From assembly GCF_032191775.1 (NCBI RefSeq), contig NZ_CP132507.1, forward strand, positions 397,001-461,000: DNA of 64,000 nucleotides. The letters are read 5' to 3'. Positions within the stretch are counted from its first letter, which is position 1; each line of letters starts with the position of its first letter. The position numbers and the translations under genes are program-made. The notes beneath the pieces are model-generated. The model did not search any database and was not told the DNA's origin. It saw only the letters and a program-made list of their open reading frames with translations. This document shows positions 4,419-64,000 of this stretch, piece after piece. Source of the DNA: Rhodoferax mekongensis. GTDB lineage: Bacteria; Pseudomonadota; Gammaproteobacteria; Burkholderiales; Burkholderiaceae_C.

Positions 4419-4466
4419 GCTACATTTTTAATAGCTGCTTGCGCACAATCAGCGAGCGCCAGAGCC
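4419..4466 (+). repeat. Dispersed Comamonadaceae-type repeat, copy 1
   Basis: It lies between the convergent comM and mshN. It shows the element's order: GCTA plus a T-rich spacer, ATAGCTGCTTGCGCA, a spacer, then GAGCGCCAGAGCC. Confidence 0.7.
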
Positions 4467-4502
4467 TGATTTTCTTGCCGCCGCGAGGTAGGCAGCACAC
4501 GA

Positions 4503-5582
4503 TCAAGGTTTGTCGTTGAGTGTGACCCCCTGCTGTCGCAGGTAGGTAAGCACCTCTTTGCTGACCGGCGCAATGGCGCGTGCTTTCTCTGCCAACTCTG
4601 CCGCCGCAACCAACTGGCCCAAAGCTGCCTGGGACACTGCACTCCCCAGCAACCAGCGCTGCTCGGCAGGACGGGCCTGCAAGGCAGTGGCATAAAACTG
4701 CAGCGCATCCTGATGCCGGCCCAAACGCTGTGCGGCATTGGCACGTACGGCCCACAGGTCCGGCTGGGCGACCATGAGTGGCTCGTAGCGGCCCAACAAT
4801 TCCAGAACCGCCGCAGCCCTGCCTTGCGCCAGTTCCATGCGCGCCAATTCGCGCAGCAGTTGCAGCTGGGTCGCGGCAGGAGCTGGTGGGCTGGCACGTT
4901 CGGCCGTGTGCAGTGTGTCTTGCAAAAGCTGGATGGCCGTATCCTGAGATCCGCTGCTGCTGAGCGCCTGGGCTTGAGCAAGCACATCGCGGGTCGCATT
5001 TTGTTGACGCTGCGCAACGACAACCGGATCAGGACCAGAAGCTGCGGCCGCCACCGCCACCGCCACTGGCGCGGTTGTAGCAGGCGAAGAAGAAGACACC
5101 AAACTGGCGGAGGAAGCAAGCTTCAATCCCCCGGACTCCGGCGAAGGAGCCATTGGCCGCGGCTTTTCCGCAGTCACCACTGGCGCAAGAGCTGCCGGCT
5201 TGGCAGGCGCTGCTGTGTCTGTGTGTGAAAGTGCAGAAGACTCTTTCACAGGCACCGAAGTTGCCATGGCGGGCGGCTGCGCAGGCGGAGCCTGCACCGC
5301 CGACTGCAGTTCCGGCTGCACAACTTGCGCACGACCCGCAACGCCCGGCACGATTTCAGGCAATGACGTCGATGGACGGAGCCACAACCACCACGCTGCC
5401 AGCCCGAGCACTAGCAATGCAGCGCAGCCGCCCCCCCACAGCAGGGCCCGATGGTGGCGGGCCTTCACAGATGTAGTGATATGGGGCACAGCGGCAGCGC
5501 GGACTCCGGCCCGCAAGGCGGGATCGAGGGTGGAGGCGGTACGCTGGTCCAAGTCACGCAGCATTTTGTTGATCACACTCAT
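4503..5582 (-). CDS. mshN: MSHA biogenesis protein MshN (TPR protein)
   Basis: 359 residues. The N-terminus MSVINKMLRDLDQR is the MshN signature. A single membrane segment follows at about residues 45-67 (ALLWGGGCAALLVLGLAAWW), then a long Pro/Ala/Ser-rich linker and a C-terminal tetratricopeptide region (from about residue 215) with the repeat style of ARANAAQRLGRHQDALQFYATALQARP. MshN is an accessory inner-membrane assembly factor of MSHA type IV pili. It is the last gene of the mshI-N block and its start overlaps the mshM stop by four bases. A G7 tract at 5431-5437 is in frame here. Confidence 0.9.
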   Translation of the reverse strand: MSVINKMLRDLDQRTASTLDPALRAGVRAAAVPHITTSVKARHHRALLWGGGCAALLVLGLAAWWLWLRPSTSLPEIVPGVAGRAQVVQPELQSAVQAPPAQPPAMATSVPVKESSALSHTDTAAPAKPAALAPVVTAEKPRPMAPSPESGGLKLASSASLVSSSSPATTAPVAVAVAAAASGPDPVVVAQRQQNATRDVLAQAQALSSSGSQDTAIQLLQDTLHTAERASPPAPAATQLQLLRELARMELAQGRAAAVLELLGRYEPLMVAQPDLWAVRANAAQRLGRHQDALQFYATALQARPAEQRWLLGSAVSQAALGQLVAAAELAEKARAIAPVSKEVLTYLRQQGVTLNDKP

Positions 5583-16496: not shown

Positions 16497-16544
16497 GCTA
16501 TGTTTTTAGGAGCTTTTTGCGCAATGTTTATGGGCGCCAGAGGC
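16497..16544 (+). repeat. Dispersed repeat, copy 3
   Basis: This well-preserved copy lies between divergent mshC and the ligase gene: GCTATGTTTTTAGGAGCT, then TTTTGCGCA, a spacer and TGGGCGCCAGAGGC. Confidence 0.75.
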
Positions 16545-16609
16545 AGATTTAACCATCAAATGCCGTTGACGCCATGCACCGGTAGTCCTTGCGCAAGCTT
16601 ATTCGCACT

Positions 16610-22954: not shown

Positions 22955-23770
22955 TTATGTAGCGCTGTTAAAAGGGGCGGGATTCCGCTCAGCGGGGCTG
23001 CGCGCCGGGGTAATGCTGTTGCCCTCCACCGTCACATGCTGGCCGACGCTGGCGCTATTCGCCTGCTCGATGGTGCGAACGCTGCCGTCTTCCATGCGTA
23101 CTTCGACCAGGTAGACCGTGTCTTTTTTCAGGCGCTTTTCCACGGTGTTCCCGGCCCAGCCGCCGCCCAACACACCGGCAATAGTGGCCAGGGCTTTGCC
23201 GTCACCGCCGCCGAACTGGTTGCCCACCAGACCACCCAGCAACGCGCCTGCCACCGCGCCCGCGCCACTGGGGTTGGCACTTTCGCGCTGAACCGGCGTC
23301 ACACTCTCGACCACGCCGCACGTGGCGCACACGACTCTGGCGGGAAGCTGCACAGGAGCCTGAACGGGCACGGGTGCCGCCGCCACAGGCGCACTATGGG
23401 CGACCGGCACACCTGCTACCGGCGTCACGACCGGCGCAGACACCTTGGTCGCCCCTTGATTTGCTACTGATTTAGGAGCTGTCTGCGCATATTTGGCGGG
23501 CGCCGATGGCACTTTTTTATCCAAAACGACAGGAGTGACTGCAGGCACTACAGCGGCCGTGGGCGCCTGCACGGACTCCAAAGGTGCAGGCGTAGCGGGT
23601 GAATGGATGGCCACGACCTCCAGGGGCGCGTCCGGCTGGGCCGGGCCCATCTGCTGGCGCAGCACGACGGCTCCCAGCGCGAGAGTACTGGCACCCAGCA
23701 CACCGATGGCACCCCACAACACCTTGTTCCCGGCAGCTGACGCACCGGAATGAGACAAAACAGTCGACAT
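22955..23770 (-). CDS. Glycine-zipper 2TM domain protein (larger paralogue)
   Basis: 271 residues. An N-terminal membrane anchor (VLWGAIGVLGASTLALGAVVL) and a long Pro/Ala/Val-rich linker precede a CATCGVVESV motif. The glycine-zipper segment AGAVAGALLGGLVGNQFGGG continues into LGGGWAGNTVEKRLKK, and a small C-terminal beta domain follows. The fold matches SlyB/17-kDa-antigen-like envelope proteins; the role is unknown. It lies 46 bases upstream of mshE. A dispersed repeat is translated in frame in the linker (KYAQTAPKSVANQG). It is paralogous to the next gene upstream. Confidence 0.8.
   Translation of the reverse strand: MSTVLSHSGASAAGNKVLWGAIGVLGASTLALGAVVLRQQMGPAQPDAPLEVVAIHSPATPAPLESVQAPTAAVVPAVTPVVLDKKVPSAPAKYAQTAPKSVANQGATKVSAPVVTPVAGVPVAHSAPVAAAPVPVQAPVQLPARVVCATCGVVESVTPVQRESANPSGAGAVAGALLGGLVGNQFGGGDGKALATIAGVLGGGWAGNTVEKRLKKDTVYLVEVRMEDGSVRTIEQANSASVGQHVTVEGNSITPARSPAERNPAPFNSAT
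23463..23506 (+). repeat. Dispersed repeat, copy 4 (inside a gene)
   Basis: TTTAGGAGCTGTCTGCGCA, a spacer and GCGGGCGCC lie inside the glycine-zipper gene. The gene reads the complement without a stop codon. Confidence 0.7.
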
Positions 23771-24517: not shown

Positions 24518-27283
24518 TTACAGGTTGGGCGCCAGCAGGCGTTCCAGCGCGGTGCGGTCGAGCTTGCGGCGCTCAGCCAGGTCGTGCACCTGGTCGTCCC
24601 CGATCCTGCCGACATTGAAGTAGGTTGCGTCCGGGTGCCCGATGTAGAAGCCGCTCACGCTGGCCGCCGGGGTCATGGCCAGGCTCTCGGTCACCGTCAT
24701 GCCGACCTCTTCGCACTGCAGAAGAGCGAACATGTCCTTCTTGACGCTGTGGTCCGGGCAGGCAGGGTAGCCGGGTGCGGGGCGGATGCCTTTGTACTTC
24801 TCACCGATCAGGTCCTCATTGCTGAGCGACTCGCCTGCGGCGTAGCCCCAGAGATCGGTGCGCACACGATGGTGCAAGCACTCGGCAAAGGCCTCCGCAA
24901 GGCGGTCAGCAATCGCCTTGAGCATGATGGCGGAGTAGTCGTCATGGTCATCGAGGAAATACTTTTCCTTTTTGTCCACGCCGATACCGGCTGTGACGGC
25001 GAACATGCCGGCGTAGTCCGCCTTGACGCCTTTGGGGGCCACAAAGTCCGCCAGGCAACGGCTGGGGCGCATCACACCGTCTATTTCCTGCTTCTCGGTT
25101 TGCTGGCGCAGGCCGTACCAGGTCATGGCGACCTCGCTGCGGCTCTCGTCCGTGTAGAACTCGATGTCGTCGTCATTCACCGTGTTGGCAGGGTACAAGG
25201 CCACGACGGCGTTGGCAGTGAGCCAGCGCCCTTCGATCAGTCGCTTGAGCATGCGCTGGCCATCGGAGTACACCCGCACGGCCTCGGTGCCCACCACCTC
25301 GTCCTTGAGGATGGCAGGAAACGGGCCCGCCAGGTCCCAGGTCTGGAAGAACGGCGCCCAGTCGATGTACTTGGCCAGCTCGGTCAGGTCAAAGTTCTTG
25401 AACACACGGCGGCCGATGAACTTCGGTACGGTGGGCTGGTGGGCAGACCAATCGATGGACGCTTTGTTGGCGCGCGCTTTGACCAAGGGCCACAAAGGCG
25501 TTTGCTTTTTGCTGGCGTGCTGATGGCGCACCTTGTCGTAGTCGGCGTTGAGCTCGGCAATATAAGCAGCAGCGCTTTCGCTGAGCAGGCTCTGGGCCAC
25601 GCTGACACTGCGGGAAGCATCGGGCACATAGACCACCGGGCCTTCGTAGTTGGGCGCAATCTTCACGGCGGTGTGAACGCGACTGCAGGTGGCGCCACCG
25701 ATGAGCAGCGGGATGTTGCGGCTGCGGAAGTACTCGTCCTTCTGCATCTCGCCGGCCACGTACTGCATCTCTTCCAGGCTGGGGGTGATCAGGCCGGAGA
25801 GGCCGATGATGTCTGCGCCCTCTTCCTTGGCCTTGGCCAAGATCTCATGGCAAGGCACCATGACGCCCATGTTCACCACATCAAAGTTATTGCACTGGAG
25901 CACGACGGTGACGATGTTTTTACCAATGTCGTGCACGTCGCCTTTCACGGTCGCAATCACGATCTTGCCTTTGGCTTTCGCCTCGCCACCGGCCTCCACC
26001 ATGGCGAGCTTTTCAGCCTCGATGTAGGGCAGCAGGTGCGCCACCGCGCTCTTCATCACGCGGGCACTTTTCACCACTTGCGGCAGGAACATCTTGCCCT
26101 GGCCGAACAAATCCCCCACCACATTCATGCCGTCCATGAGCGGGCCTTCGATCACGTGCAGTGGACGGCCGCCCTTCGCCAGAATCTCTCGGTAGGCTTC
26201 TTCGGTGTCTTCGGTGATGAAGTCGGTAATGCCGTGCACCAAGGCATGGCTCAGGCGCTGGGCCACCGCCACAGGAGCCTCGGGGGTGCCGCGCCATTCC
26301 AGCTTTTTGCTCTCGTCCTTGGCGCCGCTCTTTGCCGTTTCGGCAATCTCCACCAAGCGTTCGCCCGCGTCAGGTCGGCGGTTCAGCACCACGTCTTCCA
26401 CGCGCTCGCGCAGGGTGGTCTCCAAGTCGTCGTACACGCCGACCATGCCGGCGTTCACGATGCCCATGTCCATGCCGGCTTTGATCGCGTGGTACAGGAA
26501 CACAGTGTGAATCGCTTCACGCACCGGGTCGTTGCCGCGGAAGGAGAACGACACGTTGGACACGCCACCGCTCACCTTGGCGCCGGGCAGGTTCTGCTTG
26601 ATCCAGCGGGTAGCCTCGATGAAGTCCACTGCGTAGTTGTTGTGCTCTTCAATGCCGGTGGCAATGGCAAAGATGTTGGGGTCGAAGATGATGTCTTCAG
26701 GCGGAAAGTCCACCTCATCCACCAGCACACGGTAGGCGCGTTCGCAGATCTCCACTTTGCGTTGGTAGGTGTCGGCCTGGCCTTTTTCATCAAAGGCCAT
26801 CACTACGGCGGCGGCGCCATAGCGGCGCAGCAGTTTGGCCTGGCGTTTGAACTCGTCCACGCCCTCTTTCATGCTGATGGAGTTCACCACTGCCTTGCCC
26901 TGCACGCAGCGCAGACCCGCTTCGATCACGCTCCACTTGGAGCTGTCGATCATGATCGGCACGCGGGAAATATCGGGCTCAGAAGCGATCAGGTTCAGGA
27001 AGCGCACCATGGCGGCTTGGCTGTCCAGCATGGCCTCGTCCATGTTGATGTCGATGATCTGCGCCCCGTTTTCCACCTGCTGACGGGCCACGGCCAAAGC
27101 CTCTTCAAACTGGCCGTTCAAGATCATGCGGGCGAAGGCCTTGGAACCGGTGACGTTGGTGCGCTCACCGACGTTCACAAACAGGCTGCTGCTGTCGATG
27201 GTGATGGGCTCCAGGCCTGAGAGCAGCATGGGCGCTACGGTTTTAGGAGCTGCTTGCGCAGATTCGACGGGTGCTAGAGACAT
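24518..27283 (-). CDS. metH: Methionine synthase, folate/cobalamin/activation half (MetH part 2)
   Basis: 921 residues. This is the second half of cobalamin-dependent methionine synthase: methyltetrahydrofolate-binding domain ([16 protein letters not shown]), cobalamin cap and B12 domain with the DVHDIGKN motif that supplies the cobalt-ligating His, and a C-terminal AdoMet activation domain ([15 protein letters not shown]). The homocysteine-binding domain is encoded separately at 29050-30126. The ATG at 27283 is preferred; six upstream codons would need a TTG start. A dispersed repeat is translated in the N-terminal extension. The two halves are separated by two unrelated same-strand genes. 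Confidence 0.95.
27233..27279 (+). repeat. Dispersed repeat, copy 5 (inside metH part 2)
   Basis: GTTTTAGGAGCTGCTTGCGCA followed by a spacer and ACGGGTGCTAGAG covers codons just after the start of metH part 2. The translated complement contains [12 protein letters not shown]. Confidence 0.7.
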
Positions 27284-27312
27284 AAATGACCTAAAAATCA
27301 ATGATCAGCGGC

Positions 27313-28311
27313 TTAAACCGCAACCCAGGCGCCCGTGCGCTGGGAGGCAAACAGGGCATCGATGATGCGCATGTTCTGGATGGCGTCTTCCACGCCGTAT
27401 TGCAAGGCTTGCTCACCACGGATAGCGAGCGAGAAGGCATCCCCCTCCAGGCTGTACTGATCGCAAGCCGCAAAGGTTTCCACGACGGCTTCGCGACCGC
27501 CGAGTACCTTGCCATCGTCCACAAGGATGCGAGTTTCCTGGCCTTGGGGCGCATTGAACGGGATCTCAATCTCCACCCGTTTTTCCGTACCTACCACGTG
27601 AGCCCTTTGGTAGGGCGTGGTTTGCATGGACACCGTGAAATCCAGACGCCGGCCATCACCAAAATCGAGCAAGGCGCTGAATGTGCGGTCCACGCCGAAG
27701 TCGGTGTCCATGTCTGCCAAGGCCATCACCCGCACCGGCTCTGTGCCAAACAAAAAGCGCCCGGCCACGATGGGGTAGCAACCGATGTCCATCAACGCGC
27801 CGCCGCCCTTGGTGGCATCGTTGCGGATGTTGGTCGCACTGCGGTTGAAATACGAGAACCAGACCTGGACCGTACGCAAATCACCCAACGCACCGCTTTG
27901 CACCAGCTCGCGGGTGCGCAGCCACTGCGGGTGAAAGCGCACCATGAAGGCTTCCATGATGTGCACTTTGCCCGCCACTTCACGCAGCTGGGCTGCCTCA
28001 TTGGCGTTCAGGGCGATCGGCTTTTCACACAACACATGCTTGCCCGCGCGGGCTGCTGCCAGCGTCAAAGGAACGTGTTGGTCGTTCGGCAGAGGGTTGT
28101 AAATGGCCTCTATCGAAGGGTCCGCCAACAACTCCTCGTAGGACCCGTAGGCTTTGGGAATACCCAGCTTGCCCGCCGCCGCCTGCGCGCTCTCCAGGGA
28201 GCGCGAGGCAATGGCTTGGACGTCGCACCACTGACTGCGCTGAAGCGCAGGGGTGACTTTCTCCATCCCGATTTTGGCAGTGCTCAGCACGCCCCAGCGG
28301 ACTTTGTTCAT
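27313..28311 (-). CDS. Gfo/Idh/MocA family oxidoreductase
   Basis: 332 residues. An N-terminal Rossmann domain starts MNKVRWGVLSTAKIGMEKV, the family signature EKPIALN is present, and a C-terminal Gfo/Idh domain follows (GGGALMDIGCYPIVAGRFL). These enzymes oxidise or reduce sugars, inositols or related polyols with NAD(P). The substrate is unknown. The gene sits between the two halves of metH, 29 bases upstream of metH part 2, and may be cotranscribed with them although no link to methionine metabolism is evident. Confidence 0.9.
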   Translation of the reverse strand: MNKVRWGVLSTAKIGMEKVTPALQRSQWCDVQAIASRSLESAQAAAGKLGIPKAYGSYEELLADPSIEAIYNPLPNDQHVPLTLAAARAGKHVLCEKPIALNANEAAQLREVAGKVHIMEAFMVRFHPQWLRTRELVQSGALGDLRTVQVWFSYFNRSATNIRNDATKGGGALMDIGCYPIVAGRFLFGTEPVRVMALADMDTDFGVDRTFSALLDFGDGRRLDFTVSMQTTPYQRAHVVGTEKRVEIEIPFNAPQGQETRILVDDGKVLGGREAVVETFAACDQYSLEGDAFSLAIRGEQALQYGVEDAIQNMRIIDALFASQRTGAWVAV

Positions 28312-28336
28312 GGCAAGTGGGTCCTTTTTGTCAGGC

Positions 28337-28960
28337 TTAACGGTAGTAAATCAAGGAGACACCCAGATGATGGCCCTTGGCGGTGTAGTTGGTGGGTGCG
28401 TATTCGAATGTTTCATCCACCAACTTGAATGCGACCCCAAACCGGCCCATAGGATTCGCATGGCGCTTGGTCAGATATTGCGCTTCCAGCACATAACCAG
28501 GTCGAGGTGTGAAATCGTAGTTACCCACACCCGAAACGACGCCATAGGACTCTAACCTTGCAGAGGTTGCCAAACGCAAGCCGCCACCCACACGCCAGTG
28601 ATCGCCCAAGTTGTAAAAACCAAGCAACTCCACGGGTACGCGGGTGAAAGTGAAGTCGCCATTGCTTCCGCTGGTGGAGGTGCGCTCATGCCCGAGGGAG
28701 AACTGGATATCCGCCTTATCAGTGATGGAGTAACTCACCCCCGCAGCTACCGCCAGTCCATTGCCGGCTTTGATGGAATAGGTACCGGCATTGTTAGCGT
28801 AATTGCCCTTGACGAGCTCCTCGCTTCCGTCCCCAAAGTTATAACCAAAAGACCCGAAGAACTGCCATGGCGAAGCTGGCTTAAGGGTCTCACTTTGGTT
28901 CTGGGCAGCAGCGCCACTTGAAATAGCAATGGCAATCGCTGCGATGGCGATAGATCTCAT
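28337..28960 (-). CDS. Outer-membrane beta-barrel protein
   Basis: 207 residues. A signal peptide (MRSIAIAAIAIAISSGAAAQ) is followed by alternating amphipathic strands (WQFFGSFGYNFGDGSE, GVSYSITDKADIQFSLGH) and an aromatic C-terminal strand ending LGVSLIYYR. This is an 8-strand-type barrel resembling OmpW/porin-family small barrels. It has no recognisable substrate signature. It lies between metH part 1 and the Gfo/Idh gene on the same strand. Confidence 0.75.
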   Translation of the reverse strand: MRSIAIAAIAIAISSGAAAQNQSETLKPASPWQFFGSFGYNFGDGSEELVKGNYANNAGTYSIKAGNGLAVAAGVSYSITDKADIQFSLGHERTSTSGSNGDFTFTRVPVELLGFYNLGDHWRVGGGLRLATSARLESYGVVSGVGNYDFTPRPGYVLEAQYLTKRHANPMGRFGVAFKLVDETFEYAPTNYTAKGHHLGVSLIYYR

Positions 28961-29049
28961 GAATTTTCTCCCTGGTTAAGTGTGTCGGTCTGGCAAGGTC
29001 GCGGCGCCAGACCTGGCCGCTAAGAGGCTGCGTGACGACCTATGTGCCG

Positions 29050-30126
29050 TCACGCAGCATCCTTATAAAAGTAGCCGCGTTGCACGTTGCGGGTCGCAAT
29101 CGGGTTCACCGCATGGGCGATCGCACCAATGTGGTCGGGGGTGGTGCCGCAGCAGCCACCCACAATATTGACCAAGCCCTCTTCCGCAAACTCCCGCACC
29201 AAACGGCTGGTCACATCCGGCGTTTCGTCAAAGCCGGTGTCGCTCATGGGGTTGGGCAGGCCCGCGTTAGGGTAGCAGCTGATAAAGGTGTCCGTCGCCA
29301 CCTTGTTCAGCTCCTGGATGTAGGGGCGCATGAGCGCTGCACCGAGTGCGCAGTTCAGTCCAATCGCCAGTGGCTGCGCATGGCGCACGCTGTGCCAGAA
29401 GGCGGTTACTGTCTGGCCACTCAAGATGCGGCCGGAAGCGTCGGTCACGGTGCCGCTGATGATGATGGGCAGGCGCTCCCCACTGGCTTCGAAGTATTCG
29501 TCCACTGCAAACAGCGCGGCTTTGGCGTTGAGCGTGTCAAAAATAGTTTCCACCAAGATGACGTCCGCCCCGCCTTCCACCAGCGCCTTGGTCTGATCGT
29601 AATAAGCGGCCCGCAGCTCTTCAAATGTCACATTGCGGGCGCCGGGGTCGTTCACATCGGGGCTGATGCTGGCGGTTTTGGGCGTGGGGCCGAGGGCGCC
29701 GCACACAAAACGCGGCTTCTCAGGGGTGCTGAACTTGTCACACGCTGCGCGGGCCAACTTGGCAGACACATAGTTCATCTCGATGGCCAAGTCGGCCATG
29801 TCGTAGTCCGCCTGGGCTACGGTGGTGGCGCCGAAGGTGTTGGTTTCGATCATGTCCGCACCGGCGGCCAAGTAGGCCTCGTGGATGTCGGTGATCACGT
29901 CCGGACGTGTCAGGCTCAACAACTCGTTGTTGCCTTTGACGTCTTTGGGGAAGTCTTTGAAACGGTCGCCTTGGCTGCCCGGGCCGGCGTAGCCCTCGCC
30001 ACGGTACTGGGCCTCGCCCAGCTTGAAGCGCTGGATCATGGTGCCCATGGCGCCGTCCAGAATGGCGATGCGGCTGGCCAGAATGCCGGGGAGCGCTTGG
30101 GCGCGGGTATAGGTGATGGGCTTCAT
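29050..30126 (-). CDS. metH: Methionine synthase, homocysteine-binding half (MetH part 1)
   Basis: 358 residues, about the size of the MetH homocysteine S-methyltransferase domain alone. The N-terminal segment [14 protein letters not shown] is diagnostic. The zinc-binding cysteines are visible in GLNCALGA and in [11 protein letters not shown]. The ATG at 30126 is favoured over a GTG four codons upstream. It must act together with the cobalamin-carrying half at 24518-27283. An SAH riboswitch lies directly upstream. Confidence 0.93.
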
Positions 30127-30156
30127 GGTGCGGCTCACTATGTGGATTGAAACAAG

Positions 30157-30228
30157 TGAGCGCAGTTGGAGTCCCCAAGCCTGACCGGTTCGGTGTGTTC
30201 ACACGTTGCGGCTGCAGCGCCCCTTGGG
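30157..30228 (-). ncRNA. S-adenosylhomocysteine (SAH) riboswitch
   Basis: On the minus strand the leader reads CCAAGGGGCGCTGCAGC, a variable arm, GTCAGGCTTGGGG, a short linker and TGCGCTCA. This matches the SAH aptamer core (GCGCUGC, CAGGCU and the pseudoknot partner GCGCUCA), and CCAAG pairs with CTTGG. It lies about 30 bases upstream of metH part 1. SAH riboswitches turn on SAH-recycling and methionine genes when SAH accumulates. Confidence 0.88.
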
Positions 30229-30398
30229 TGGGTGGATTTTAAACGACAAGCGCGCGCCGCATTGCCGCGTTGCAAATAAGCACCGGGCAGCTGAAGCTAC
30301 TGTGCCATAGATAGGCACCCGGCTTGCCCGACAATAGAAACCCTGCCCATGGCGGCCCTACGGCGGTCTAACCAAGGGAAATGTATGCCTTTTTGCCA

Positions 30399-30443
30399 CC
30401 TGGCGCCCGCGGAATATGCGCGAGCAGCTCCTGATTTGATAGC
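30399..30443 (-). repeat. Dispersed repeat, copy 6 (reverse orientation)
   Basis: The complement reads CGCTATCAAATCAGGAGCTG, then CTCGCGCA, a spacer and GCGGGCGCCAGG. It is among the best-preserved copies and lies just upstream of recQ. Confidence 0.75.
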
Positions 30444-30450
30444 GTTTTAA

Positions 30451-32298
30451 GTGCCTCACCTGCAGATTCTTCACGATGTATTTGGCTACCAGGCCTTCCG
30501 CGGGCCCCAGCAAGCCATCGTGGAGCATGTGATCGCGGGCGGGGATGCGCTGGTGCTTATGCCCACGGGCGGTGGCAAAAGCCTCTGTTACCAGGTTCCT
30601 GCCATTGCCCGCCAACAAGCGGGCCTGGGTGCGACGCTGGTCATTTCCCCCCTGATTGCGCTGATGCACGACCAGGTGGGCGCCCTGCATGAAGCCGGGG
30701 TGAGTGCAGCTTTTCTGAACTCTACCCTCACCAGCGACGAGGCCTACCACGTCGAGCAGCAACTGCTGCGCGGCGAGATCACCCTGCTCTACGCGGCACC
30801 CGAGCGGGTCAGCAACGCACGCTTTCTGGCCTTGTTGGATTCGCTCTTTGAGCGTGGCAAGCTGAGCCTGTTTGCGATCGATGAAGCCCACTGCGTGAGT
30901 CAGTGGGGCCACGACTTCCGGCCCGACTACCGCAACCTCACCGTGTTGCATGAGCGCTACCCCGGCGTACCACGTATCGCCCTGACGGCTACGGCAGACG
31001 ACCTGACCCGTGCCGACATTCTGGAACGTTTGCAGCTCGAAGAGGCCCGTGCCTTCGTCAGCAGTTTCGACCGACCCAACATCCGCTACACGATTGTCGA
31101 AAAGAAGGACTCCACCACCCAGTTGCTGCGCTTCATCGAGCGCGAGCATGAGGGAGAGGCCGGCATCGTCTACTGCCAGAGCCGCAAAAAAGTGGAAGAC
31201 ATGGCGCAGACCTTGGTGGATGCGGGTATCAAAGCCCTGCCTTACCACGCGGGTTTGGATGCCAAAGTACGCCAACTAAACCAGGACCGGTTTTTGCGCG
31301 AGGAAGGCATCGTCATGGTGGCCACCATTGCTTTCGGCATGGGCATCGACAAGCCGGACGTCCGTTTTGTCGCCCACCGCGACATGCCCAAAAACATCGA
31401 GGGCTACTACCAGGAGACTGGCCGCGCCGGGCGTGACGGGCTGCCGGCCGATGCCTGGATGGCCTATGGCCTGCAAGACGTGGTGAACCAGCGCCGCATG
31501 ATTGACGAAAGCCCGGCCAGCGAAGAGTTCAAACAGGTCATGCGCGGAAAGTTGGACGCCTTATTGGGCTTGGCGGAAGCCACCGATTGCCGCCGCGTCC
31601 GCTTGCTGGGCTACTTTGGCGAGAAGAGCCAACCCTGCGGCAACTGCGACAACTGCCTGCATCCACCCGAGGTGTGGGATGGCACGGATGCTGCCCGCAA
31701 ACTGCTCAGCACCATTTACCGCATCCAGCAAATGAGCGGGGTAAGCTTCGGCGCGGGCCACCTGATGGACATCGTGCGCGGCAAGACGACCGAGAAAGTC
31801 ACCCAATACAGCCACGAGAGCCTGAGCACCTTCGGAATCGGCAAGGATTTCACCGAGTTGCAATTGCGCGGTGTACTGCGCCAGTTGATTGCCATGGGCG
31901 CCGTGGCCGTGGATGCGCAGGCTTTCAACACCCTGCAATTGACTGCAGAGTCGCGCGCAGTGCTCAAGGGCGAAGTTGCAGTGATGTTGAGGGAGTCGGT
32001 GTCAGCGCCGGCAGATCGCAAGCCACGGCGCAATGCGCGCTTGGGCGCTGTGGTCAAGGCGCCTATCAATCTCGACAGTGAGGGTTTGCTACGTTATTCC
32101 GCCCTGAAGGCATGGCGTGCAGAGGTGGCGCAGCAGCACAATCTGCCGGCCTATGTGATTTTTCACGATGCAACCTTGGCGGCCATTGCACAACGTGCCC
32201 CTCAATCTATCGACGATTTGCAGGGCATCAGCGGGATTGGAGCGAAGAAGCTGGAGGCTTATGCCGACGACGTTTTGAAGGTTGTCGCGCTCCAGTAA
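30451..32298 (+). CDS. recQ: ATP-dependent DNA helicase RecQ
   Basis: 615 residues. It has RecQ helicase motifs: Q-motif region [17 protein letters not shown], Walker [16 protein letters not shown] box ([20 protein letters not shown]) and motif [13 protein letters not shown] zinc-binding region includes CGNCDNC, a winged-helix domain contains [11 protein letters not shown], and an HRDC domain lies at the C-terminus ([11 protein letters not shown]). The start is GTG at 30451. RecQ unwinds DNA 3'-5' in recombination and fork repair. It is a stand-alone gene, convergent with the next one. Confidence 0.95.
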
Positions 32299-39831: not shown

Positions 39832-40645
39832 AGATTCAGCTCTTGTCCGACCTCCATTTGGAGGCCCATCCCCATTGGCAAGCCACGCCCTTGGCCGGAG
39901 CGGATGTGCTGGTACTGGCAGGCGACATCGGCTCCTACCAACCCGGCTCGCAGCTGGCGGGCGACGACTTCGGCTTGGAGCGCTTTCCCCCCTGCATGGC
40001 TGGCCGACTCCGGTGTTGTTTGTGCCCGGTAACCATGAATACGACACCCTGGACTTTGACCTCGCCCACGCCCGCCTGCGTGCCACCTGTGTGCGACTGG
40101 ACATCCAGTGGCTGGAACGTGAATCCGTCGTGCTGGCTGGCGTGCGTTTCGTCGGCACCACCTTGTGGACCGACTTTGACGCGCTCGCCGCCCAAGAGCC
40201 ACCCGAGCGACAGCTCAAGGCCCGTGACAAGGCCTATCGCGCCGCCAACTACTACCTGAAGAAAACACTCACCACCCGTGCGGACGAGCCTTGGCTGGCA
40301 GATGGTTTGCGGGAACAGGCGCTGGTCTGCCAAGCCTGGCTGCGCGACGCCTTGGCCCAGCCACACGACGGCCCCACGGTCGTGGTGACTCACTTTGCCC
40401 CCAGCCTGCACAGTGCCGACCCGCGCTACGGTCTGGTACCCGGCACCGCCGGCTTTTGCAATGCACTGGATGAACTGCTGCCGCTGGCAGACCTCTGGCT
40501 GCATGGCCATCTCCACGCCCCCAGCGACTACCGCGTGGGCAAGTGCCGGGTGGTGGCCAACCCGCTGGGCTATGTGCGCAAGAACGAACAGCTGGGCTAC
40601 CAGCCTGACCTAGTGATAGAAATAGGCTCTGGCGCCGGAGGATAG
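39828..40645 (+). pseudogene. Metallophosphoesterase, frameshifted at 39987-39992
   Basis: The N-terminal half (from ATG 39828) gives MKIQLLSDLHLEAHPHWQAT and ADVLVLAGDIG, the metal-binding D-x-H and GDI motifs. The remaining motifs appear in the next frame: FVPGNHEYD, VVVTHFAPS and LWLHGHLHAPSDY. The break lies at a C6 run; one extra C restores a 272-residue calcineurin-like phosphoesterase (FPPLHGWPTPVLFVPGNHE). It overlaps the LysR gene by four bases, so it is likely a coupled partner. Sequencing error or true inactivation cannot be told apart from one sequence. Confidence 0.8.
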
Positions 40646-40669
40646 TGCGCGAGAAGCTATCAAAATAGG
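40624..40669 (-). repeat. Dispersed repeat, copy 7 (reverse orientation)
   Basis: The complement reads CCTATTTTGATAGCTTCTCG, then CGCA, a spacer and CCGGCGCCAGAGCC. It overlaps the end of the metallophosphoesterase and lies between convergent genes. Confidence 0.65.
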
Positions 40670-40687
40670 AGCGGACTCACACAGTCA

Positions 40688-50048: not shown

Positions 50049-50095
50049 GCTATCAAAAAAGTAGCTGCCAGCACACAGCCTTCGGGCGCTAGCGG
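50049..50095 (+). repeat. Dispersed repeat, copy 9
   Basis: GCTATCAAAAAAGTAGCTGC, a short variant core, then CTTCGGGCGCTAGCGGC. It lies between the convergent epimerase and TetR genes and overlaps the end of the TetR frame by a few bases. Confidence 0.7.
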
Positions 50096-50730
50096 CTATT
50101 CAGGCCATCAAAGCAAGTGGACAGCACCAGATCGATGATTTGCGCATCGGTGTGCTGGCCACCCATGCGCAAAAACTCCAGCACCGGGTCACAGGCGCGG
50201 GCGTACAGGGTGTAGAGCACGGCAATGGCCGGCAGCTCGGGGTTGATCAGGCCTTGCGCCTGGGCTGCTTCGATCCATGCCCCTAGACGGTCGCTCACGT
50301 CCATGAGTCCGTCCATGTAGGCTTTGTGGCCCATCAGCGTGGCGCGCAAGGTGCTGTTCTGGCTGGGCAGGGAAGGCATCTCGCCGGCCAGCTTGAGCGC
50401 CATGGTCCAGCGCACCACCGCGCGCAGGCGCTGCAGGGGCGACATGTCGTCCGGCAAAGTGTCCAGAAAAGCCTGCGCCTGCCCCATCAGGTGGGCCATG
50501 GCCGCAGCGGCTAGGTCTTCCTTGCTGGGAAAGTGCTTGTACAGGCTGGCCTTGGCGATACCTACGCTGGCGGCCACCTCGTCCACCGTCATGGCCTCAA
50601 AGCCTTTTTCCGCCAGCAGCAGGTTCACCGAGCGGATGATGGCGTCCTCCCGGGCTTGCAGCATCTGCTTTTTGAAAGAGACTTTGACGGGCGCCACGGG
50701 CGCGTCCTGGACAGCGGATGGTTCGTTCAT
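50089..50730 (-). CDS. TetR-family transcriptional regulator
   Basis: 213 residues. The N-terminal helix-turn-helix is clear: AIIRSVNLLLAEKGFEAMTV, then DEVAASVGIAKASLYKHFPSKEDL, the canonical TetR signature. The C-terminal effector domain is unlike any I can name. It is convergent with the epimerase gene; the 54 bases between its start and the next gene downstream on that strand show no clear palindrome. Its target is unknown. Confidence 0.9.
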   Translation of the reverse strand: MNEPSAVQDAPVAPVKVSFKKQMLQAREDAIIRSVNLLLAEKGFEAMTVDEVAASVGIAKASLYKHFPSKEDLAAAAMAHLMGQAQAFLDTLPDDMSPLQRLRAVVRWTMALKLAGEMPSLPSQNSTLRATLMGHKAYMDGLMDVSDRLGAWIEAAQAQGLINPELPAIAVLYTLYARACDPVLEFLRMGGQHTDAQIIDLVLSTCFDGLNSR

Positions 50731-51788: not shown

Positions 51789-53114
51789 ATGAAAATTATT
51801 GTTCTCGGCGCAGGCACCATCGGCATTTGCACTGCGTGGCATTTGCTGGAACTCGGCCACGAAGTCACGGTGGTCGAGCGTCAAGCCGACGCCGCCCTGG
51901 AAACCAGTTTTGCCAATGGCGCGCAAATCTCAGTGAGTTATTGCGAACCCTGGGCCAACAAAGAGGCGCCGCTCAAGGCCCTCAAGTGGATGCTCAGCAA
52001 AGAGGCGCCGCTCCTGTTCCGCCCCCAGAACCCCTTCGGCCCCGGCCTGCACCAGTACACCTGGGGCTTGTCTTTCCTGGCCAACTGCAACGACGCGGCT
52101 TTTGAGCGCAATGTGCAGCAGCTCGTCGCTTTGGGTGCTTACAGCCACGCCGCCTTGAAGGATGTGGTTGCCAGCACCGGCATTCAATACAACCGCCTGG
52201 AGCGCGGCATTGCGCACTATTACTGCGACCAGAAGTCGTTTGACACCGCCGGGGACGCCGCTGCGCTGATGCGCAAGTACGGCGTGAACCGCCAGGTCAT
52301 CAGCAAAGAAGAGTTCCTGAAGATCGAGCCGGCCTACCGCCAGTTCGCGCACCAGATCGTGGGCGGCACCATCACCCCCAGCGACGAATCCGGCGACTGC
52401 AAGGTATTCACCCAGGAGCTGGCCAAGCTGTGCGCCGCCCGTGGCGCCGAGTTCTTGTATGAGTACAGCGTAGAGCAGCTCAATACCGACGGTGGCGCTA
52501 TCAAATCAGTAGCTGTTCGCGCACTGTCCTCGGGCGCCAAGGGCCAAACCGTGCCCGGGTCCTTCAAGGTGCTGAAGGCAGATCATGTGGTGGTCGCCAC
52601 CGGCTCCTACACCGCACCGCTCTTGCGCACCGTGGGCGTGAACCTGCCGATTTACCCCGGTAAGGGCTACAGCGCTACCTTCAAGATCTTGAAGCCTGAG
52701 CTGGCGCCGCTGGTCTCCACGATTGACGACGCCAAGAAGGTGGCCATCAGCCGCCTGGGCGACGAGCTGCGCGTGGCCGGCACCATCGAGGTCGGCGGCT
52801 TTGACCTGACATTGGATTCACCCGTGGCCAAGGCCCGCTGCCACATGCTGTCCCGCCGGATTGAAGAAGTGTTGCCCGGCGTGTGCGACACCCGCACCGA
52901 AGAGCAAGGGGGCCAGCCCAACTACTGGACCGGCCTGCGCCCCGCCACCCCCACCAACATTCCTTACATCGGCCAGTCGCCGGTCAAGGGCGTGTGGGTC
53001 AATGCCGGTCACGGTACCCTGGGGTGGACGCATGGTGCGGGGTCGGGCAAGGCGATTGCGGAGTTGATCCACGGCAAGAAGCCCGAAATGAACTTCAAGT
53101 TTTACGGGGCTTAG
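51789..53114 (+). CDS. dadA: D-amino acid dehydrogenase DadA
   Basis: 441 residues. A membrane-associated flavoprotein that oxidises D-amino acids (chiefly D-alanine) to 2-oxo acids. The FAD dinucleotide fold MKIIVLGAGTIGICTAWHLL opens the protein, VVERQADAALETSFANGAQI follows, and GLRPATPTNIPYIGQSPVKG and NAGHGTLGWTHGAGSG are family hallmarks near the C-terminus. The ATG at 51789 is chosen over an upstream TTG. A dispersed repeat is translated in frame as IKSVAVRALSSGAKG, in a loop of the substrate domain. It is divergent from the ArgP-like gene. Confidence 0.93.
   Translation: MKIIVLGAGTIGICTAWHLLELGHEVTVVERQADAALETSFANGAQISVSYCEPWANKEAPLKALKWMLSKEAPLLFRPQNPFGPGLHQYTWGLSFLANCNDAAFERNVQQLVALGAYSHAALKDVVASTGIQYNRLERGIAHYYCDQKSFDTAGDAAALMRKYGVNRQVISKEEFLKIEPAYRQFAHQIVGGTITPSDESGDCKVFTQELAKLCAARGAEFLYEYSVEQLNTDGGAIKSVAVRALSSGAKGQTVPGSFKVLKADHVVVATGSYTAPLLRTVGVNLPIYPGKGYSATFKILKPELAPLVSTIDDAKKVAISRLGDELRVAGTIEVGGFDLTLDSPVAKARCHMLSRRIEEVLPGVCDTRTEEQGGQPNYWTGLRPATPTNIPYIGQSPVKGVWVNAGHGTLGWTHGAGSGKAIAELIHGKKPEMNFKFYGA
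52496..52540 (+). repeat. Dispersed repeat, copy 10 (inside dadA)
   Basis: CGCTATCAAATCAGTAGCTG, then TTCGCGCA, a spacer and TCGGGCGCCAAGG. It is read through in the dadA frame without a stop codon. Confidence 0.75.
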
Positions 53115-55842: not shown

Positions 55843-55890
55843 GCTATTCTTTTTATAGCTGCTCGCGCACGTTTGTCGTGCGCCAGCAGC
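55843..55890 (+). repeat. Dispersed repeat, copy 11
   Basis: CGCTATTCTTTTTATAGCTG, then CTCGCGCA, a spacer and CGTGCGCCAGCAGCC. It lies in the gap between the transaminase and the dehydrogenase. Confidence 0.7.
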
Positions 55891-55913
55891 CCTTTTGACA
55901 CTTCAATCCCTCT

Positions 55914-58875: not shown

Positions 58876-58929
58876 AAGCTTCTCCCATCAAATTTCAGAA
58901 TGGCCGAAGTGTCGAGCTTTTGCGGCACT

Positions 58930-58949
58930 GCAACAATAGTGCGATCGGA
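58930..58949 (-). promoter_or_regulatory. Shared upstream motif, copy B (before the PEP-CTERM operon)
   Basis: GCAACAATAGTGCGATCGGA on the plus strand, paired with copy A at 57768-57787. The distance to the gene start is similar, so it is a candidate common promoter or regulator site. It does not fit the sigma-54 pattern well. Confidence 0.55.
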
Positions 58950-58991
58950 CTATCTACCACAAGGCTTTGAAAGTTTCGACACAATCGTCAC

Positions 58992-60879: not shown

Positions 60880-60991
60880 AGGTATCCTTGAGCTGAGGCA
60901 CTAAAGCCGCATGGGTTTGCAAGCATTCTGCCCCAGCGTGCAATGGTTTGCTGCAATAAGCGCTTGCTCTGCTACAGTGCTTCGCCTGAGC

Positions 60992-62167: not shown

Positions 62168-62237
62168 CCCCGGCGCGCCAGCGCCATCGGAGGCCTCAAG
62201 GCGCTTGTCACATCCATGCTGGGATAATCGGTCCCAC

Positions 62238-64000
62238 ATGGCACTTATTACTCTTCTTGACGCCCAGCTGGCATTCGGGCACGTCCCCCTCCTCGACCAC
62301 GCTGATTTCTCCCTCGAAACGCAGGAGCGCGTCGGCCTCATCGGCCGCAACGGCGCAGGCAAATCCTCCATGCTCAAAATTCTGGGCGGTATGGAGAAGC
62401 CTGACGACGGCACCCTGCAAGTGCAGACCGGCACCCGCATTTCCTATGTGGCACAAGAGCCGCAACTCGATGCAGACGCTACGATTTTCGTAGCTGTTCG
62501 CGCAGGTCTGGAGCGCGTTATCGGCCTGATTGAGCAATATTGCGCGGGCGAAGGCGATCTGGACGCCATGCAAAGCGAGATCGAAACGCTGGACGGCTGG
62601 AACTGGGAACAGCGGGTCAACGAGACCCTGCAACGCCTGCACCTGAATCCCGAGGCGATCGTCAACTCGCTCTCCGGCGGTACCAAAAAGCGCGTGGCCC
62701 TGGCCCAGGCGCTGGTCGCCCAGCCTGATGTGCTGCTGCTGGACGAACCCACCAACCACCTGGACCTGGACTCGATTGAATGGCTGGAAGGCCTGCTCAA
62801 GGAATTCAAGGGCTCCATCATCACCATCACCCACGACCGCTCCTTCCTGGACAACGTGGCCACCCGCATCGTGGAGCTGGACCGCGGCAAGCTGATGAGC
62901 TACCCCGGCAACTTCGCCGCCTACCTGACCCAAAAGGAAGAGCAACTCGCGCAAGAGGCGGTCATCAACGCCAAGGCCGACAAGCTGCTGGCCCAGGAGG
63001 AGGTGTGGATCCGCAAGGGCGTGGAAGCCCGCCGCACCCGCGCCACTGCCCGCATCAACCGCCTGCAAGAGCTGCGCGCCACCCGAGAAGCCCGCCGCGA
63101 AGTGGTGGGCAGCGTCAACATGGACGTGAACAGCGGCGACAAGAGCGGCAAGTTGGTGTCCGAGATGGTGCATGTGAGCAAGACCTTCGGCGACCGCATG
63201 ATCGTGAAGGACTTCACCGCCACCATTCTGCGCGGCGACAAGATCGGCCTGCTCGGCCCGAACGGCGCGGGCAAGACCACCTTGCTCAAGCTGATTCTGG
63301 GCGAGCACAAGCCGGATCCAGCCCCCGCCAATGCACCCAAACCCGAACCCGGACACAGCCCCTGGGGCACGGTGCGCCTGGGTGCCAACGTCACCGTGGC
63401 CTACTTCGACCAGATGCGCAACGCGCTGGACCTGGACGCGACGCTGGAAGACTTCATCAGCCCCGGCTCGGAGTGGATCGAAATCGGCAACCAGCGCAAG
63501 CACGTCAAAAGCTACCTGGGCGACTTTTTGTTCTCTCCGGCCCGCGCCACCTCACCGGTGCGGTCCTTGTCGGGTGGCGAGCGCAACCGCTTGCTGCTGG
63601 CCCGCCTGTTTGCCCGCCCGGCCAACGTGCTGGTGCTGGACGAACCCACCAACGACCTGGACATCGACACGCTGGAGCTGCTGGAAGACTTGCTGCAAAG
63701 CTACGACGGCACCGTTTTCCTCGTCAGCCACGACCGGACCTTCCTGGACAACGTGGTCACCAGCACCATTGCCTACGAGGGCGATGCCAAGTGGCGCGAG
63801 TACGAGGGCGGCGTGAGCGATTGGCTGATACAGACCAAGCGCGCAAACGACATTGCCGCCGCGCAAGGCAAAACCACGGCCAAGCCCTTTAATTACGAGC
63901 GCGAGCAGCTACAAAAACAGGAGCAGGCAACTGCCAAGGTGAGCGCCACTGCGCCTGCTGCACCGGCACCCGCCAAGGCCCGCAAGCTGAGCTTCAAGGA
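62238..64000 (+). CDS. uup: ABC-F ATPase Uup (3' end cut by window edge)
   Basis: 587 codons are visible from the ATG at 62238. Two ABC modules without membrane segments: the first with Walker A GRNGAGKSS and signature NSLSGGTKKRVALAQAL, Walker B VLLLDEPTNHLDLDS; the second with GPNGAGKTTLLK, signature SLSGGERNRLLLARLF and DEPTNDLDIDT. A charged linker lies between them. A C-terminal Lys/Ala-rich tail is beginning at the right edge, as in Uup. ABC-F proteins act on ribosomes; Uup is also linked to DNA transposon excision. It carries one and perhaps two dispersed-repeat copies. Confidence 0.92.
   Translation, partial: MALITLLDAQLAFGHVPLLDHADFSLETQERVGLIGRNGAGKSSMLKILGGMEKPDDGTLQVQTGTRISYVAQEPQLDADATIFVAVRAGLERVIGLIEQYCAGEGDLDAMQSEIETLDGWNWEQRVNETLQRLHLNPEAIVNSLSGGTKKRVALAQALVAQPDVLLLDEPTNHLDLDSIEWLEGLLKEFKGSIITITHDRSFLDNVATRIVELDRGKLMSYPGNFAAYLTQKEEQLAQEAVINAKADKLLAQEEVWIRKGVEARRTRATARINRLQELRATREARREVVGSVNMDVNSGDKSGKLVSEMVHVSKTFGDRMIVKDFTATILRGDKIGLLGPNGAGKTTLLKLILGEHKPDPAPANAPKPEPGHSPWGTVRLGANVTVAYFDQMRNALDLDATLEDFISPGSEWIEIGNQRKHVKSYLGDFLFSPARATSPVRSLSGGERNRLLLARLFARPANVLVLDEPTNDLDIDTLELLEDLLQSYDGTVFLVSHDRTFLDNVVTSTIAYEGDAKWREYEGGVSDWLIQTKRANDIAAAQGKTTAKPFNYEREQLQKQEQATAKVSATAPAAPAPAKARKLSFK
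62478..62514 (+). repeat. Dispersed repeat, copy 12 (inside uup)
   Basis: CGCTACGATTTTCGTAGCTG, then TTCGCGCAGG and a GAGCGC remnant. It is translated in frame as ATIFVAVRAGLER, with the same VAVRA peptide as the copy in dadA. Confidence 0.55.
63899..63922 (-). repeat. Dispersed repeat, possible copy 13 (inside uup)
   Basis: The complement reads CCTGTTTTTGTAGCTGCTCG, then CGC. Only the first half of the element is recognisable, so it may be a chance match in a repeat-like Lys/Gln-rich linker. Confidence 0.35.

What the first reader, a model, noticed from the sequence alone, without database searches (positions are those of the whole stretch)
4419..62514. Dispersed 45-50 bp repeat family, at least twelve copies in this window
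The element runs GCTATNAAAA(T/A), AGGAGCTGCTCGCGCA, 8-10 variable bases, then GGGCGCCAG. Copies sit at 4419, 11151, 16497, 23463, 27233, 30399, 40624, 44047, 50049, 52496, 55843 and 62478, in both orientations, mostly at gene ends or in gaps. The half-palindromic GCGCC end and the fixed core suggest a REP-like or MITE-like element with some conserved function. No transposase for it is visible.
Basis: seen in the sequence. Interest (0 to 1): 0.75.

Follow-up and report, generated by a model that had tools for sequence, protein, structure and literature searches.

The report
Giant DNA self-recognition tag in Rhodoferax
A 65-letter DNA motif sits about every six to seven thousand letters along the sampled chromosome of a bacterium placed in the genus Rhodoferax, matches stretches of existing genes in several places without lengthening their proteins, and is likely the tag by which these bacteria recognise their own kind's DNA when they take it up.

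Summary
The repeat is real: the 12 reported copies plus a 13th (63863-63924) score 39.8-64.1 bits; the next match is 14.3. It is a fixed-length, roughly 65-bp motif. I kept 134 copies in 864 kb of the 3.89-Mb genome, so about 600 by extrapolation. REP or MITE is not supported. Copies look nearly like independent draws from a motif, with one near-identical pair, and stems do not covary. A/T tracts avoid mixed TA steps, a DNA-shape signature. At 8 of 14 intragenic sites at least one motif-free relative has the same protein length, and unchanged residues there have new codons in 99 of 124 cases against 304 of 614 in the flanks, so the motif arose there by substitution. Copies are evenly spaced, unoriented, and absent from three low-GC samples and 200 kb of a relative's second replicon. 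Lineages have dialects. These are hallmarks of DNA uptake sequences. Comamonads are reported to transform sequence-specifically (PMC4212676, passages). Best reading, inferred: an uptake-signal-like motif kept by biased uptake (0.5). Against: unusual length, few intermediate sites, extra length at many intergenic sites. Main rival: a chromosome-organising protein's site.

The parts
4419..4480 (+). motif copy, gap between convergent genes
   Evidence: 60.2 bits; context; G001 copy at L230:7594, 35.7 bits
11153..11214 (+). motif copy, weak 3' half, gap between two minus-strand genes
   Evidence: 40.8 bits; only 15.7 bits at G001 L230:890
16497..16558 (+). motif copy, divergent gap
   Evidence: 64.1 bits, best in window; G001 copy at L229:15501
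23463..23524 (+). motif copy inside a called gene 22955-23770 (antisense)
   Evidence: 58.2 bits; only 16.3 bits in G001
27234..27295 (+). motif copy, gap between two minus-strand genes
   Evidence: 62.2 bits; gap-free in G001
30382..30443 (-). motif copy in a divergent gap, about 150 nt from an SAH riboswitch
   Evidence: 57.6 bits; riboswitch; G001 copy at L229:2205
40611..40672 (-). motif copy between convergent genes, overlapping a gene end; no match in G001, whose aligned interval is 52 nt shorter
   Evidence: 60.7 bits
44047..44108 (+). motif copy, gap between two minus-strand genes
   Evidence: 62.5 bits; gap-free in G001
50049..50110 (+). motif copy between convergent genes
   Evidence: 52.9 bits; gap-free alignments to G001 and G045
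52497..52558 (+). motif copy in frame inside gene 51789-53114
   Evidence: 56 bits; gap-free in G001 and G045; gapped in more distant congeners
55843..55904 (+). motif copy, gap between two plus-strand genes; motif-like sequence at the same site in several congeners, absent in others
   Evidence: 61.2 bits; (by eye)
62478..62539 (+). motif copy in frame inside an ABC-F (uup-like, name recalled) gene 62238-63998; homologues align without length change
   Evidence: 39.8 bits; gap-free against L212, L214, L218 and L220, of which L214 (G017) and L220 (G005) are from genomes without a match
63863..63924 (-).
   Evidence: 45.6 bits; 89% identical region in G001

Best explanation
The repeat is a fixed-length, roughly 65-bp motif of double-stranded DNA, about 155 copies per Mb in the sampled 22% of this genome, that likely works as a DNA uptake signal: a tag that the cell's type IV pilus DNA-uptake machine would recognise. 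Shown: its anatomy (an A/T-tract dyad GCTAT-7-ATAGC, a core TGCTYGCGCA-8-GRGCGCYAG, then AGGCCnATTTGAC-4-AA), even spacing, lack of orientation, absence from three low-GC samples and from 200 kb of a relative's second replicon, origin by substitution at several sites inside genes, and lineage dialects. Inferred: a pilus protein reads the cores and the shape of the A/T tracts; DNA carrying better copies is taken up more often and recombined into the chromosome; that biased uptake (molecular drive) builds and keeps the copies wherever protein sequence and gene spacing allow. Not shown: any effect of the motif on uptake, or which protein binds it.
For: 1. Origin by substitution inside genes. Of 25 intragenic copies, 14 could be compared with relatives without a match (G017, G004, G007): 13 of 27 comparisons have no net length change, 22 of 27 are within 5 aa, one (21 aa) is of element size. 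In 13 comparisons with no residue missing across the element, residues identical to the relative have a different codon in 99 of 124 cases, against 304 of 614 in the flanks, P=2e-10. 2. Near-independent sites: one near-identical pair (60/67), 1.8 kb apart; next best 54, null maximum 49-55. 3. Shape: positions 52-53 are TT in 86 and AA in 29 of 132 copies, TA or AT in 5; at 9-10 TA occurs in 2, at 8-9 it is not among the listed types. 4. Even spacing: variance/mean 0.40 over 37 samples, P=0.0005; neighbours within 1 kb 7% against 18-21% simulated. 5. No strand bias, 67 plus to 65 minus. 6. None in three low-GC 20-kb samples, 9.8 expected, a post hoc contrast. No significant match in 200 kb of G001's second replicon against 15 in 100 kb of its chromosome. 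7. Dialects in the central core. 8. The own genome has ComEC and a ComP_DUS-family minor pilin in a pilin cluster. 9. Published (passages): Verminephrobacter eiseniae and two of four Acidovorax species tested are naturally transformable; uptake in V. eiseniae needs type IV pili and is inferred to be sequence-specific; A. temperans gave transformants only with DNA of its own species (which recombination barriers could also cause).
Against: No uptake was measured. Known uptake sequences are much shorter (9-11 bp DUS; about 31 bp USS); this is about 65 bp. Intermediate sites are few: 15 of 137 hits lie between 14 and 35 bits. Intergenic gaps of motif-free relatives are shorter in 11 of 12 comparisons by 12-96 nt, which suggests insertion or loss there; at window 55843 two relatives are 59 and 79 nt shorter and four are 99-298 nt longer. 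ComEC and ComP_DUS occur in motif-free congeners, and some motif-bearing ones gave no match: ComEC in G011 and G019, ComP_DUS in G011 and G012, all incomplete assemblies. Pair identities are more dispersed than the null (sd 4.9 against 3.6) and 23 copies have a partner at 52/67 or better against 0.6 expected; neighbour dependence or some copying could cause this. The plasmid and phage searches used one consensus and have limited sensitivity. Passages on known uptake sequences call their spacing relatively even in one place and uneven in others.
Confidence: 0.5

Rival explanations
1. The motif is the binding site of a chromosome-organising (nucleoid) protein or of gyrase, and selection on chromosome structure maintains it. 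The A/T tracts near positions 0, 9.5, 30, 52.5 and 62.5 would bend DNA around the protein over about six helical turns.
For: Even spacing, avoidance of TA steps in the tracts, dyads, enrichment at convergent gene ends (21 copies in 12.3 kb of convergent gap against 8 in 20.3 kb of divergent gap), no match in 200 kb of a second replicon. A period near 11 is weakly supported (permutation P=0.04). Origin by substitution fits this equally well.
Against: The motif is missing by this model from 12 of 25 genomes of the genus, including G017 at 100% completeness. Dialects would need repeated co-evolution of hundreds of sites. Selection on about 600 sites of this information content each is demanding (inference).
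Confidence: 0.25
2. An ancient short mobile element (REP/MITE-like) that spread by insertion and has since been fixed, with later gene conversion among copies.
For: Multi-copy, preference for gaps, extra length of 12-96 nt at 11 of 12 intergenic comparisons, few intermediate sites, mild excess of similar pairs.
Against: No net length change in 13 of 27 intragenic comparisons, with synonymous recoding; no near-identical copies but one local pair; no match in 200 kb of a second replicon; no RAYT association; evenly rather than randomly spaced.
Confidence: 0.14
3. A transcription terminator or other RNA element at gene ends.
For: Enriched at 3' ends and convergent gaps; the element folds somewhat more stably than mononucleotide shuffles (mean -16.6 against -12.8 kcal/mol, one shuffle per copy).
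Against: No covariation above shuffles; pair 4/14 is unpaired in 29 of 56. The T-run is TT in 19 of 31 sense and 17 of 22 antisense tandem copies. 50 of 132 exact-length copies are intragenic, 26 sense and 24 antisense.
Confidence: 0.06

Closest known systems
Uptake signal sequence (USS) of Pasteurellaceae
   Same: Many chromosomal copies, no orientation bias, scarce in newly acquired DNA, suggested to evolve by point mutation rather than insertion, A/T tracts of rigid, slightly bent shape beside a conserved core, lineage variants; distribution called relatively even in one passage (PMC7811141 and PMC1939737, passages read).
   Different: Here about 65 bp instead of about 31; two dyads; about 155 per Mb instead of about 1 per kb; A/T tracts may be A- or T-stranded; uptake not tested.
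DNA uptake sequence (DUS) of Neisseriaceae and its minor-pilin receptor
   Same: Dialects by lineage; a ComP_DUS-family pilin is present in this genome.
   Different: DUS is 9-11 bp as cited in PMC4212676; the pilin family also occurs in motif-free congeners and is not found in two motif-bearing ones, so no link is shown.
Motif pair GCTTAT(N)5AAGCG of Acidovorax ebreus TPSY (PMC5217627, section 13 read)
   Same: Its letters and spacing fit the core of the AGCGCT-8-AAGCGC dialect, clearest here in G061 (8 of 10 copies with AAGCGC) and G131 (4 of 4). It has 114 copies, 107 intergenic, of which 44 between convergent genes and 4 divergent.
   Different: A piece of the motif was described there as a potential novel motif, without function. 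The second comamonad pair in that table (Polaromonas naphthalenivorans, ATAGCT(N)22CAAAAG, 125 copies) shares ATAGCT, but I could not match its second half.
Beta-proteobacterial repeat element, BRE (PMC3110155, section 14 read)
   Same: Short chromosomal repeat in Comamonadaceae and Bordetella, some copies inside genes.
REP sequences with RAYT (TnpA-REP)
   Same: Hundreds of short repeats with dyads, mostly outside genes (REP side recalled).
   Different: No RAYT flanking, no base-pair covariation, copies formed in place within genes.

Membership tests
DNA uptake sequences (DUS/USS) | promotes uptake of DNA that carries it | not testable with these tools
   needs an uptake assay
DNA uptake sequences (DUS/USS) | many copies over the chromosome without orientation bias | tested here: met
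   134 copies kept in 864 kb; 67 plus and 65 minus among the 132 of exact length
DNA uptake sequences (DUS/USS) | arises by point mutation in existing sequence, not insertion | tested here: inconclusive
   Inside genes met: 13 of 27 comparisons with no net length change, 22 of 27 within 5 aa; synonymous recoding 99 of 124 against 304 of 614 in flanks. In gaps: relatives shorter in 11 of 12 comparisons.
DNA uptake sequences (DUS/USS) | scarce in newly acquired and mobile DNA | tested here: met
   0 in three low-GC samples, 9.8 expected; no significant match in 200 kb of a second replicon; with limited sensitivity, plasmids 2 of 72,556 records and phages 0 of 50,697
DNA uptake sequences (DUS/USS) | lineage dialects | tested here: met
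   position 39 is G in 11 of 11 G021 and 8 of 8 G086 copies against 15 of 132 own; AAGCGC in 8 of 10 G061 and 4 of 4 G131 copies; the sets were picked by similarity to the own model
DNA uptake sequences (DUS/USS) | graded excess of mismatched forms | tested here: inconclusive
   15 of 137 hits at 14-35 bits; reversed control 0; synonymous-codon-shuffled genes alone about 7 per replicate in that range
DNA uptake sequences (DUS/USS) | short: about 10-bp DUS, about 31-bp USS | tested here: not met
   conserved over about 65 positions
DNA uptake sequences (DUS/USS) | competence machinery and receptor in the host | tested here: inconclusive
   ComEC 22 of 25, ComP_DUS 21 of 25 genomes; present in motif-free ones, no match in motif-bearing G011 and G019 (ComEC) and G011 and G012 (ComP_DUS)
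REP/RAYT | palindrome kept by base pairing | tested here: not met
   covariation not above shuffles
REP/RAYT | RAYT gene flanked by copies | tested here: not met
   nearest copies about 4.2 and 5.3 kb from the one Y1-domain match in the own genome
MITE | terminal inverted repeats | tested here: not met
   ends TTGCTA and ATTTGAC....AA do not mirror each other (by reading)
MITE | target-site duplication at empty sites | tested here: inconclusive
   relatives too diverged at the gaps
MITE | recent, near-identical copies | tested here: not met
   one pair of 60/67, 1.8 kb apart; next best 54, among 132 copies
Intrinsic terminator | stem followed by T-run on the sense strand | tested here: not met
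   TT in 19 of 31 sense and 17 of 22 antisense tandem copies

The most novel reading that the evidence does not exclude
This is the missing uptake signal of the comamonads: a third, independent lineage of self-DNA recognition besides Pasteurellaceae and Neisseriaceae, and much the longest. It is read largely by DNA shape over six helical turns, with central dialects that may set which relatives can exchange genes.
Probability: 0.42. Interest if true: 0.9.

Novelty: new variant of a known kind. Interest (0 to 1): 0.8.

Why it matters
Uptake sequences are a leading example of molecular drive, and strong sequence preference is described for two families (PMC7811141, passages). Natural transformation in comamonads was reported as sequence-specific in 2014 (PMC4212676, passages), with no signal named in what I read. 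A candidate with a position matrix, dialects and a candidate receptor gene makes that question testable in one experiment, and would give an independent case for how such signals arise. If the nucleoid rival is right instead, it is an unusually long and regular chromosome-marking site whose protein is unknown.

Tried and rejected
Transposition: rejected as the main explanation because copies are little more alike than motif draws apart from one pair and because of unchanged protein lengths with synonymous recoding. Kept as a rival because of the intergenic length differences.

RNA structure: rejected by pair counts and by the mutual-information ranking, in which the 14 listed column pairs are neighbours or close columns and none is a stem pair.

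Terminator: rejected. Replication-linked motif (Chi- or KOPS-like): rejected, no strand bias overall.

Presence of RAYT-like or competence genes as the reason for the patchy distribution: no association seen. Y1_Tnp is in 24, ComEC in 22, GspH in 25 and ComP_DUS in 21 of 25 genomes of the genus, the own one included.

Frame locking (42 of 50 intragenic copies in one frame) looked like strong evidence for in-place origin, but the consensus is open in only one frame per strand, so removal of stop codons explains it.

Codon-position test: matches to consensus lowest at codon position 2 (0.69 and 0.72 against 0.77 and 0.79 at position 3); suggestive but small.

Helical phasing of A/T: only P=0.04. 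Median spacing does not differ from simulation (P=0.16 and 0.08); the evenness lies in the deficit of close neighbours and in the counts. Target-site duplication: relatives too diverged. Rfam: only the SAH riboswitch (one search covered 27000-31000 only).
Full report
Observation. The repeat exists as described. A 12-copy model finds 13 window copies of 39.8-64.1 bits; the next best match is 14.3 bits. The conserved block is about 65 positions long: TT, GCTAT-7 nt-ATAGC (or GGAGC), TGCTYGCGCA, 8 nt, GRGCGCYAG, AGGCCnATTTGAC, 4 nt, AA.

Genome and sample. The window is C1:397001-461000 of a 3,889,336-bp single-contig genome. That call scored only 150 of 2259 first-look candidates and all 150 passed. 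I therefore sampled 40 stretches of 20 kb plus the window, 864 kb or 22% of the genome. The model gave 145 hits at E<=0.1. I dropped 11: 8 reverse-strand shadows of kept copies, L188:3698 with its shadow, and L173:7815. I kept 134, of which 132 have exactly 62 model positions. The density of 155 per Mb extrapolates to about 600 copies. A matrix scan of the reversed sequence gives no hit of 14 bits or more; the forward scan gives 137. The matrix was built from these same copies, so the count is not independent of them.

Where copies sit. With a home-made gene caller (89% of bases coding), 51 of 134 copies are intragenic, 32 in tandem gaps in sense, 22 in tandem gaps antisense, 21 in convergent and 8 in divergent gaps. 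Per kb of gap this is 1.7 convergent, 1.1 tandem and 0.4 divergent. Of 50 intragenic copies of exact length, 42 lie in the one frame that is open in the consensus (22 of 26 sense, 20 of 24 antisense). Loss of stop codons explains that.

How copies in genes arose. I took 25 intragenic copies scoring 38 bits or more, outside the window, and searched them in G001 (motif-bearing) and in G017, G004 and G007 (no match). Fourteen sites could be compared with a motif-free genome, in 27 comparisons. In 13 the protein length across the element is unchanged on balance, in 22 the difference is at most 5 aa, and in one it equals the element (21 aa). Unchanged sites include sequences that look like ManC (GRNTAPALT), CoaBC (ATVFIA), RarA and a permease (names recalled, not from a call). 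In 13 comparisons with no residue missing across the element (one, L173 against G007, has four extra residues in the relative), amino-acid identity is 0.45 in the element and 0.79 in the flanks. Among residues identical to the relative the codon differs in 99 of 124 cases in the element and in 304 of 614 in the flanks, P=2e-10; the sites were chosen because they carry the motif, so this shows how it is encoded, by synonymous change in place. Copies in linkers differ by 8-21 aa from some relatives (5 of 27 comparisons), so length change is not excluded there.

Copies in gaps. For 17 gap sites searched in four relatives without a match (G017, G004, G007, G006), five sites gave both flanks on one contig, in 12 comparisons. 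Eleven are shorter in the relative by 12-96 nt and one is 186 nt longer. At window 55843, G007 and G042 are 79 and 59 nt shorter while G009, G018, G020 and G002 are 99-298 nt longer. Insertion in this lineage and loss in the relatives cannot be told apart, and the sequences are too diverged to see target-site duplications. One such relative shows a remnant-like sequence at one site (L336). In the window, 10 of 13 sites carry a clear copy in G001 (27 bits or more), two a weak one (15.7 and 16.3 bits), and 40611 none.

What is being kept. Copies are nearly as different from each other as independent draws from the motif: mean identity 37.6 of 67, one pair at 60, next 54, null maxima 49-55. Identities are somewhat more dispersed than the null (sd 4.9 against 3.6), and 23 copies have a partner at 52 or better against 0.6 expected. 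The strongest column dependencies are between neighbours in the A/T tracts. Positions 52-53 are TT (86) or AA (29) and TA or AT in only 5 of 132. At 9-10 there are TT 89, AA 20, AT 15 and TA 2; at 8-9 TT 55, AA 40, AT 34 and no TA among those listed. Avoidance of TA steps with indifference to strand is how an A-tract requirement looks, and it points to recognition of double-stranded DNA shape (inference). Position 29-30 does not follow this rule (AT 63, TA 15). Stem pairs do not covary: cells paired 90.5% against 91.3% shuffled, and pair 4/14 unpaired in 29 of 56.

Distribution. Spacing is more even than random: variance/mean 0.40 over 37 samples, P=0.0005; 7% of spacings under 1 kb against 18% (uniform) or 21% (gap-weighted) simulated, none of 2000 simulations as low. 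The three low-GC samples hold none, 9.8 expected; this contrast was drawn after seeing the counts. G001 has 15 copies at E<=3.6e-5 in 100 kb of chromosome and nothing better than 13.3 bits in 200 kb of its 305-kb second replicon; the best in 200 kb of G017 is 17.5 bits, E=0.026. A blastn search with one 70-nt consensus at E<=0.01 found 2 of 72,556 plasmid records and none of 50,697 phage records; it would miss diverged copies. Of 25 genomes of the genus (own included) 13 have a match at E<=1e-6, three of them only 1, 2 and 8; the 16 genomes of other families have none. In the family, 28 of 90 genomes, one per genus, have a match, seven of them only 1-4. Named genomes with 144-150 of 150 scored candidates: three Rhodoferax, a Giesbergeria, a Curvibacter, a Rubrivivax and a Comamonadaceae MAG; none in a Variovorax, a Ramlibacter, a Mitsuaria, a Quisquiliibacterium and a Sterolibacterium. 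The model is tuned to the own dialect, so absence may mean a distant dialect.

Dialects. The outer parts are constant while the central core varies. Position 39 is C in 116 and G in 15 of 132 own copies, but G in 11 of 11 G021, 6 of 10 G012 and 8 of 8 G086 copies (GGGGGCT or GAGGGCT). About half of 17 G024 copies read YACGCA on the left or GGGCGTT on the right. G061 has GCGCT on the left in 8 of 10 and AAGCGC on the right in 8 of 10; G131 has AAGCGC in 4 of 4; G056 and G118 are mixed. These sets were picked by similarity to the own model, which understates the differences.

Interpretation. No orientation, preference for gaps, avoidance of acquired DNA, origin by point mutation, A/T tracts beside a core, and dialects are together the profile given for DNA uptake sequences, whose spacing is called relatively even in one passage and uneven in others (PMC7811141 and PMC1939737, passages). 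The host has ComEC and a ComP_DUS-family minor pilin beside pilY1, pilX, pilW and a GspH-type pilin. Both families also occur in motif-free congeners, and motif-bearing G011 and G019 gave no ComEC match, G011 and G012 no ComP_DUS match (incomplete assemblies, 88-94%), so they show opportunity, not cause. Davidson et al. (PMC4212676, passages and outline) report that V. eiseniae and two of four Acidovorax species are naturally transformable, that uptake in V. eiseniae needs type IV pili and is reduced at most about 10-fold by excess salmon sperm DNA, and that A. temperans gave transformants only with its own species' DNA. No signal is named in the passages I read. The central piece of one dialect was listed in 2017 as an unexplained motif of Acidovorax ebreus (PMC5217627, section 13). 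My searches for uptake sequences in this family returned nothing or one unrelated title; most subscription papers are not in that library.

What does not fit. The motif is about twice the length of the longest uptake sequence in the passages. Intermediate sites are few (15 of 137 hits at 14-35 bits; genes with shuffled synonymous codons still give about 7 per replicate there and one hit above 60 bits in three replicates, so that control is not clean). Intergenic copies often bring length with them. A chromosome-organising protein explains the spacing, the shape rule, the synonymous recoding and the absence from the second replicon equally well, though not easily the patchy presence among congeners or the dialects. 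I put the uptake signal at 0.5 and the nucleoid site at 0.25.

Noticed in passing
window 30151-30231, minus strand: SAH riboswitch (RF01057, 46.4 bits), about 150 nt from the motif copy at 30382-30443.
   Followed up: partly
L180:9955-12459 (own genome C1:3129955-3132459): The called gene that holds the ComEC match carries two motif copies (L180:11201 and L180:12278).
   Followed up: no
own genome C1:1452570-1452809 (L435:7570-7809): One weak Y1-transposase-domain match in an open frame of 243 aa; 24 of 25 genomes of the genus have at least one Y1 match, many in an open frame of about 240-250 aa; the own one is not flanked by copies.
   Followed up: partly
L155:7883 and L155:9708: The only near-identical pair of copies (60 of 67), 1.8 kb apart, perhaps a local duplication.
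   Followed up: no
L150, L177, L178 (own genome 20-40, 2820-2840 and 2920-2940 kb): Low-GC stretches (41-48% against about 60%), perhaps acquired DNA, without any copy.
   Followed up: partly
L376:6417-15005, minus strand: Minor pilin cluster: GspH-type pilin, PilW, PilX, PilY1 and a ComP_DUS-family pilin, the candidate receptor.
   Followed up: partly
G021, G012 and G086 loci: The right half-site changes to GGGGGCT or GAGGGCT while the left mostly stays GCGCA, so the central dyad loses symmetry in that dialect.
   Followed up: no
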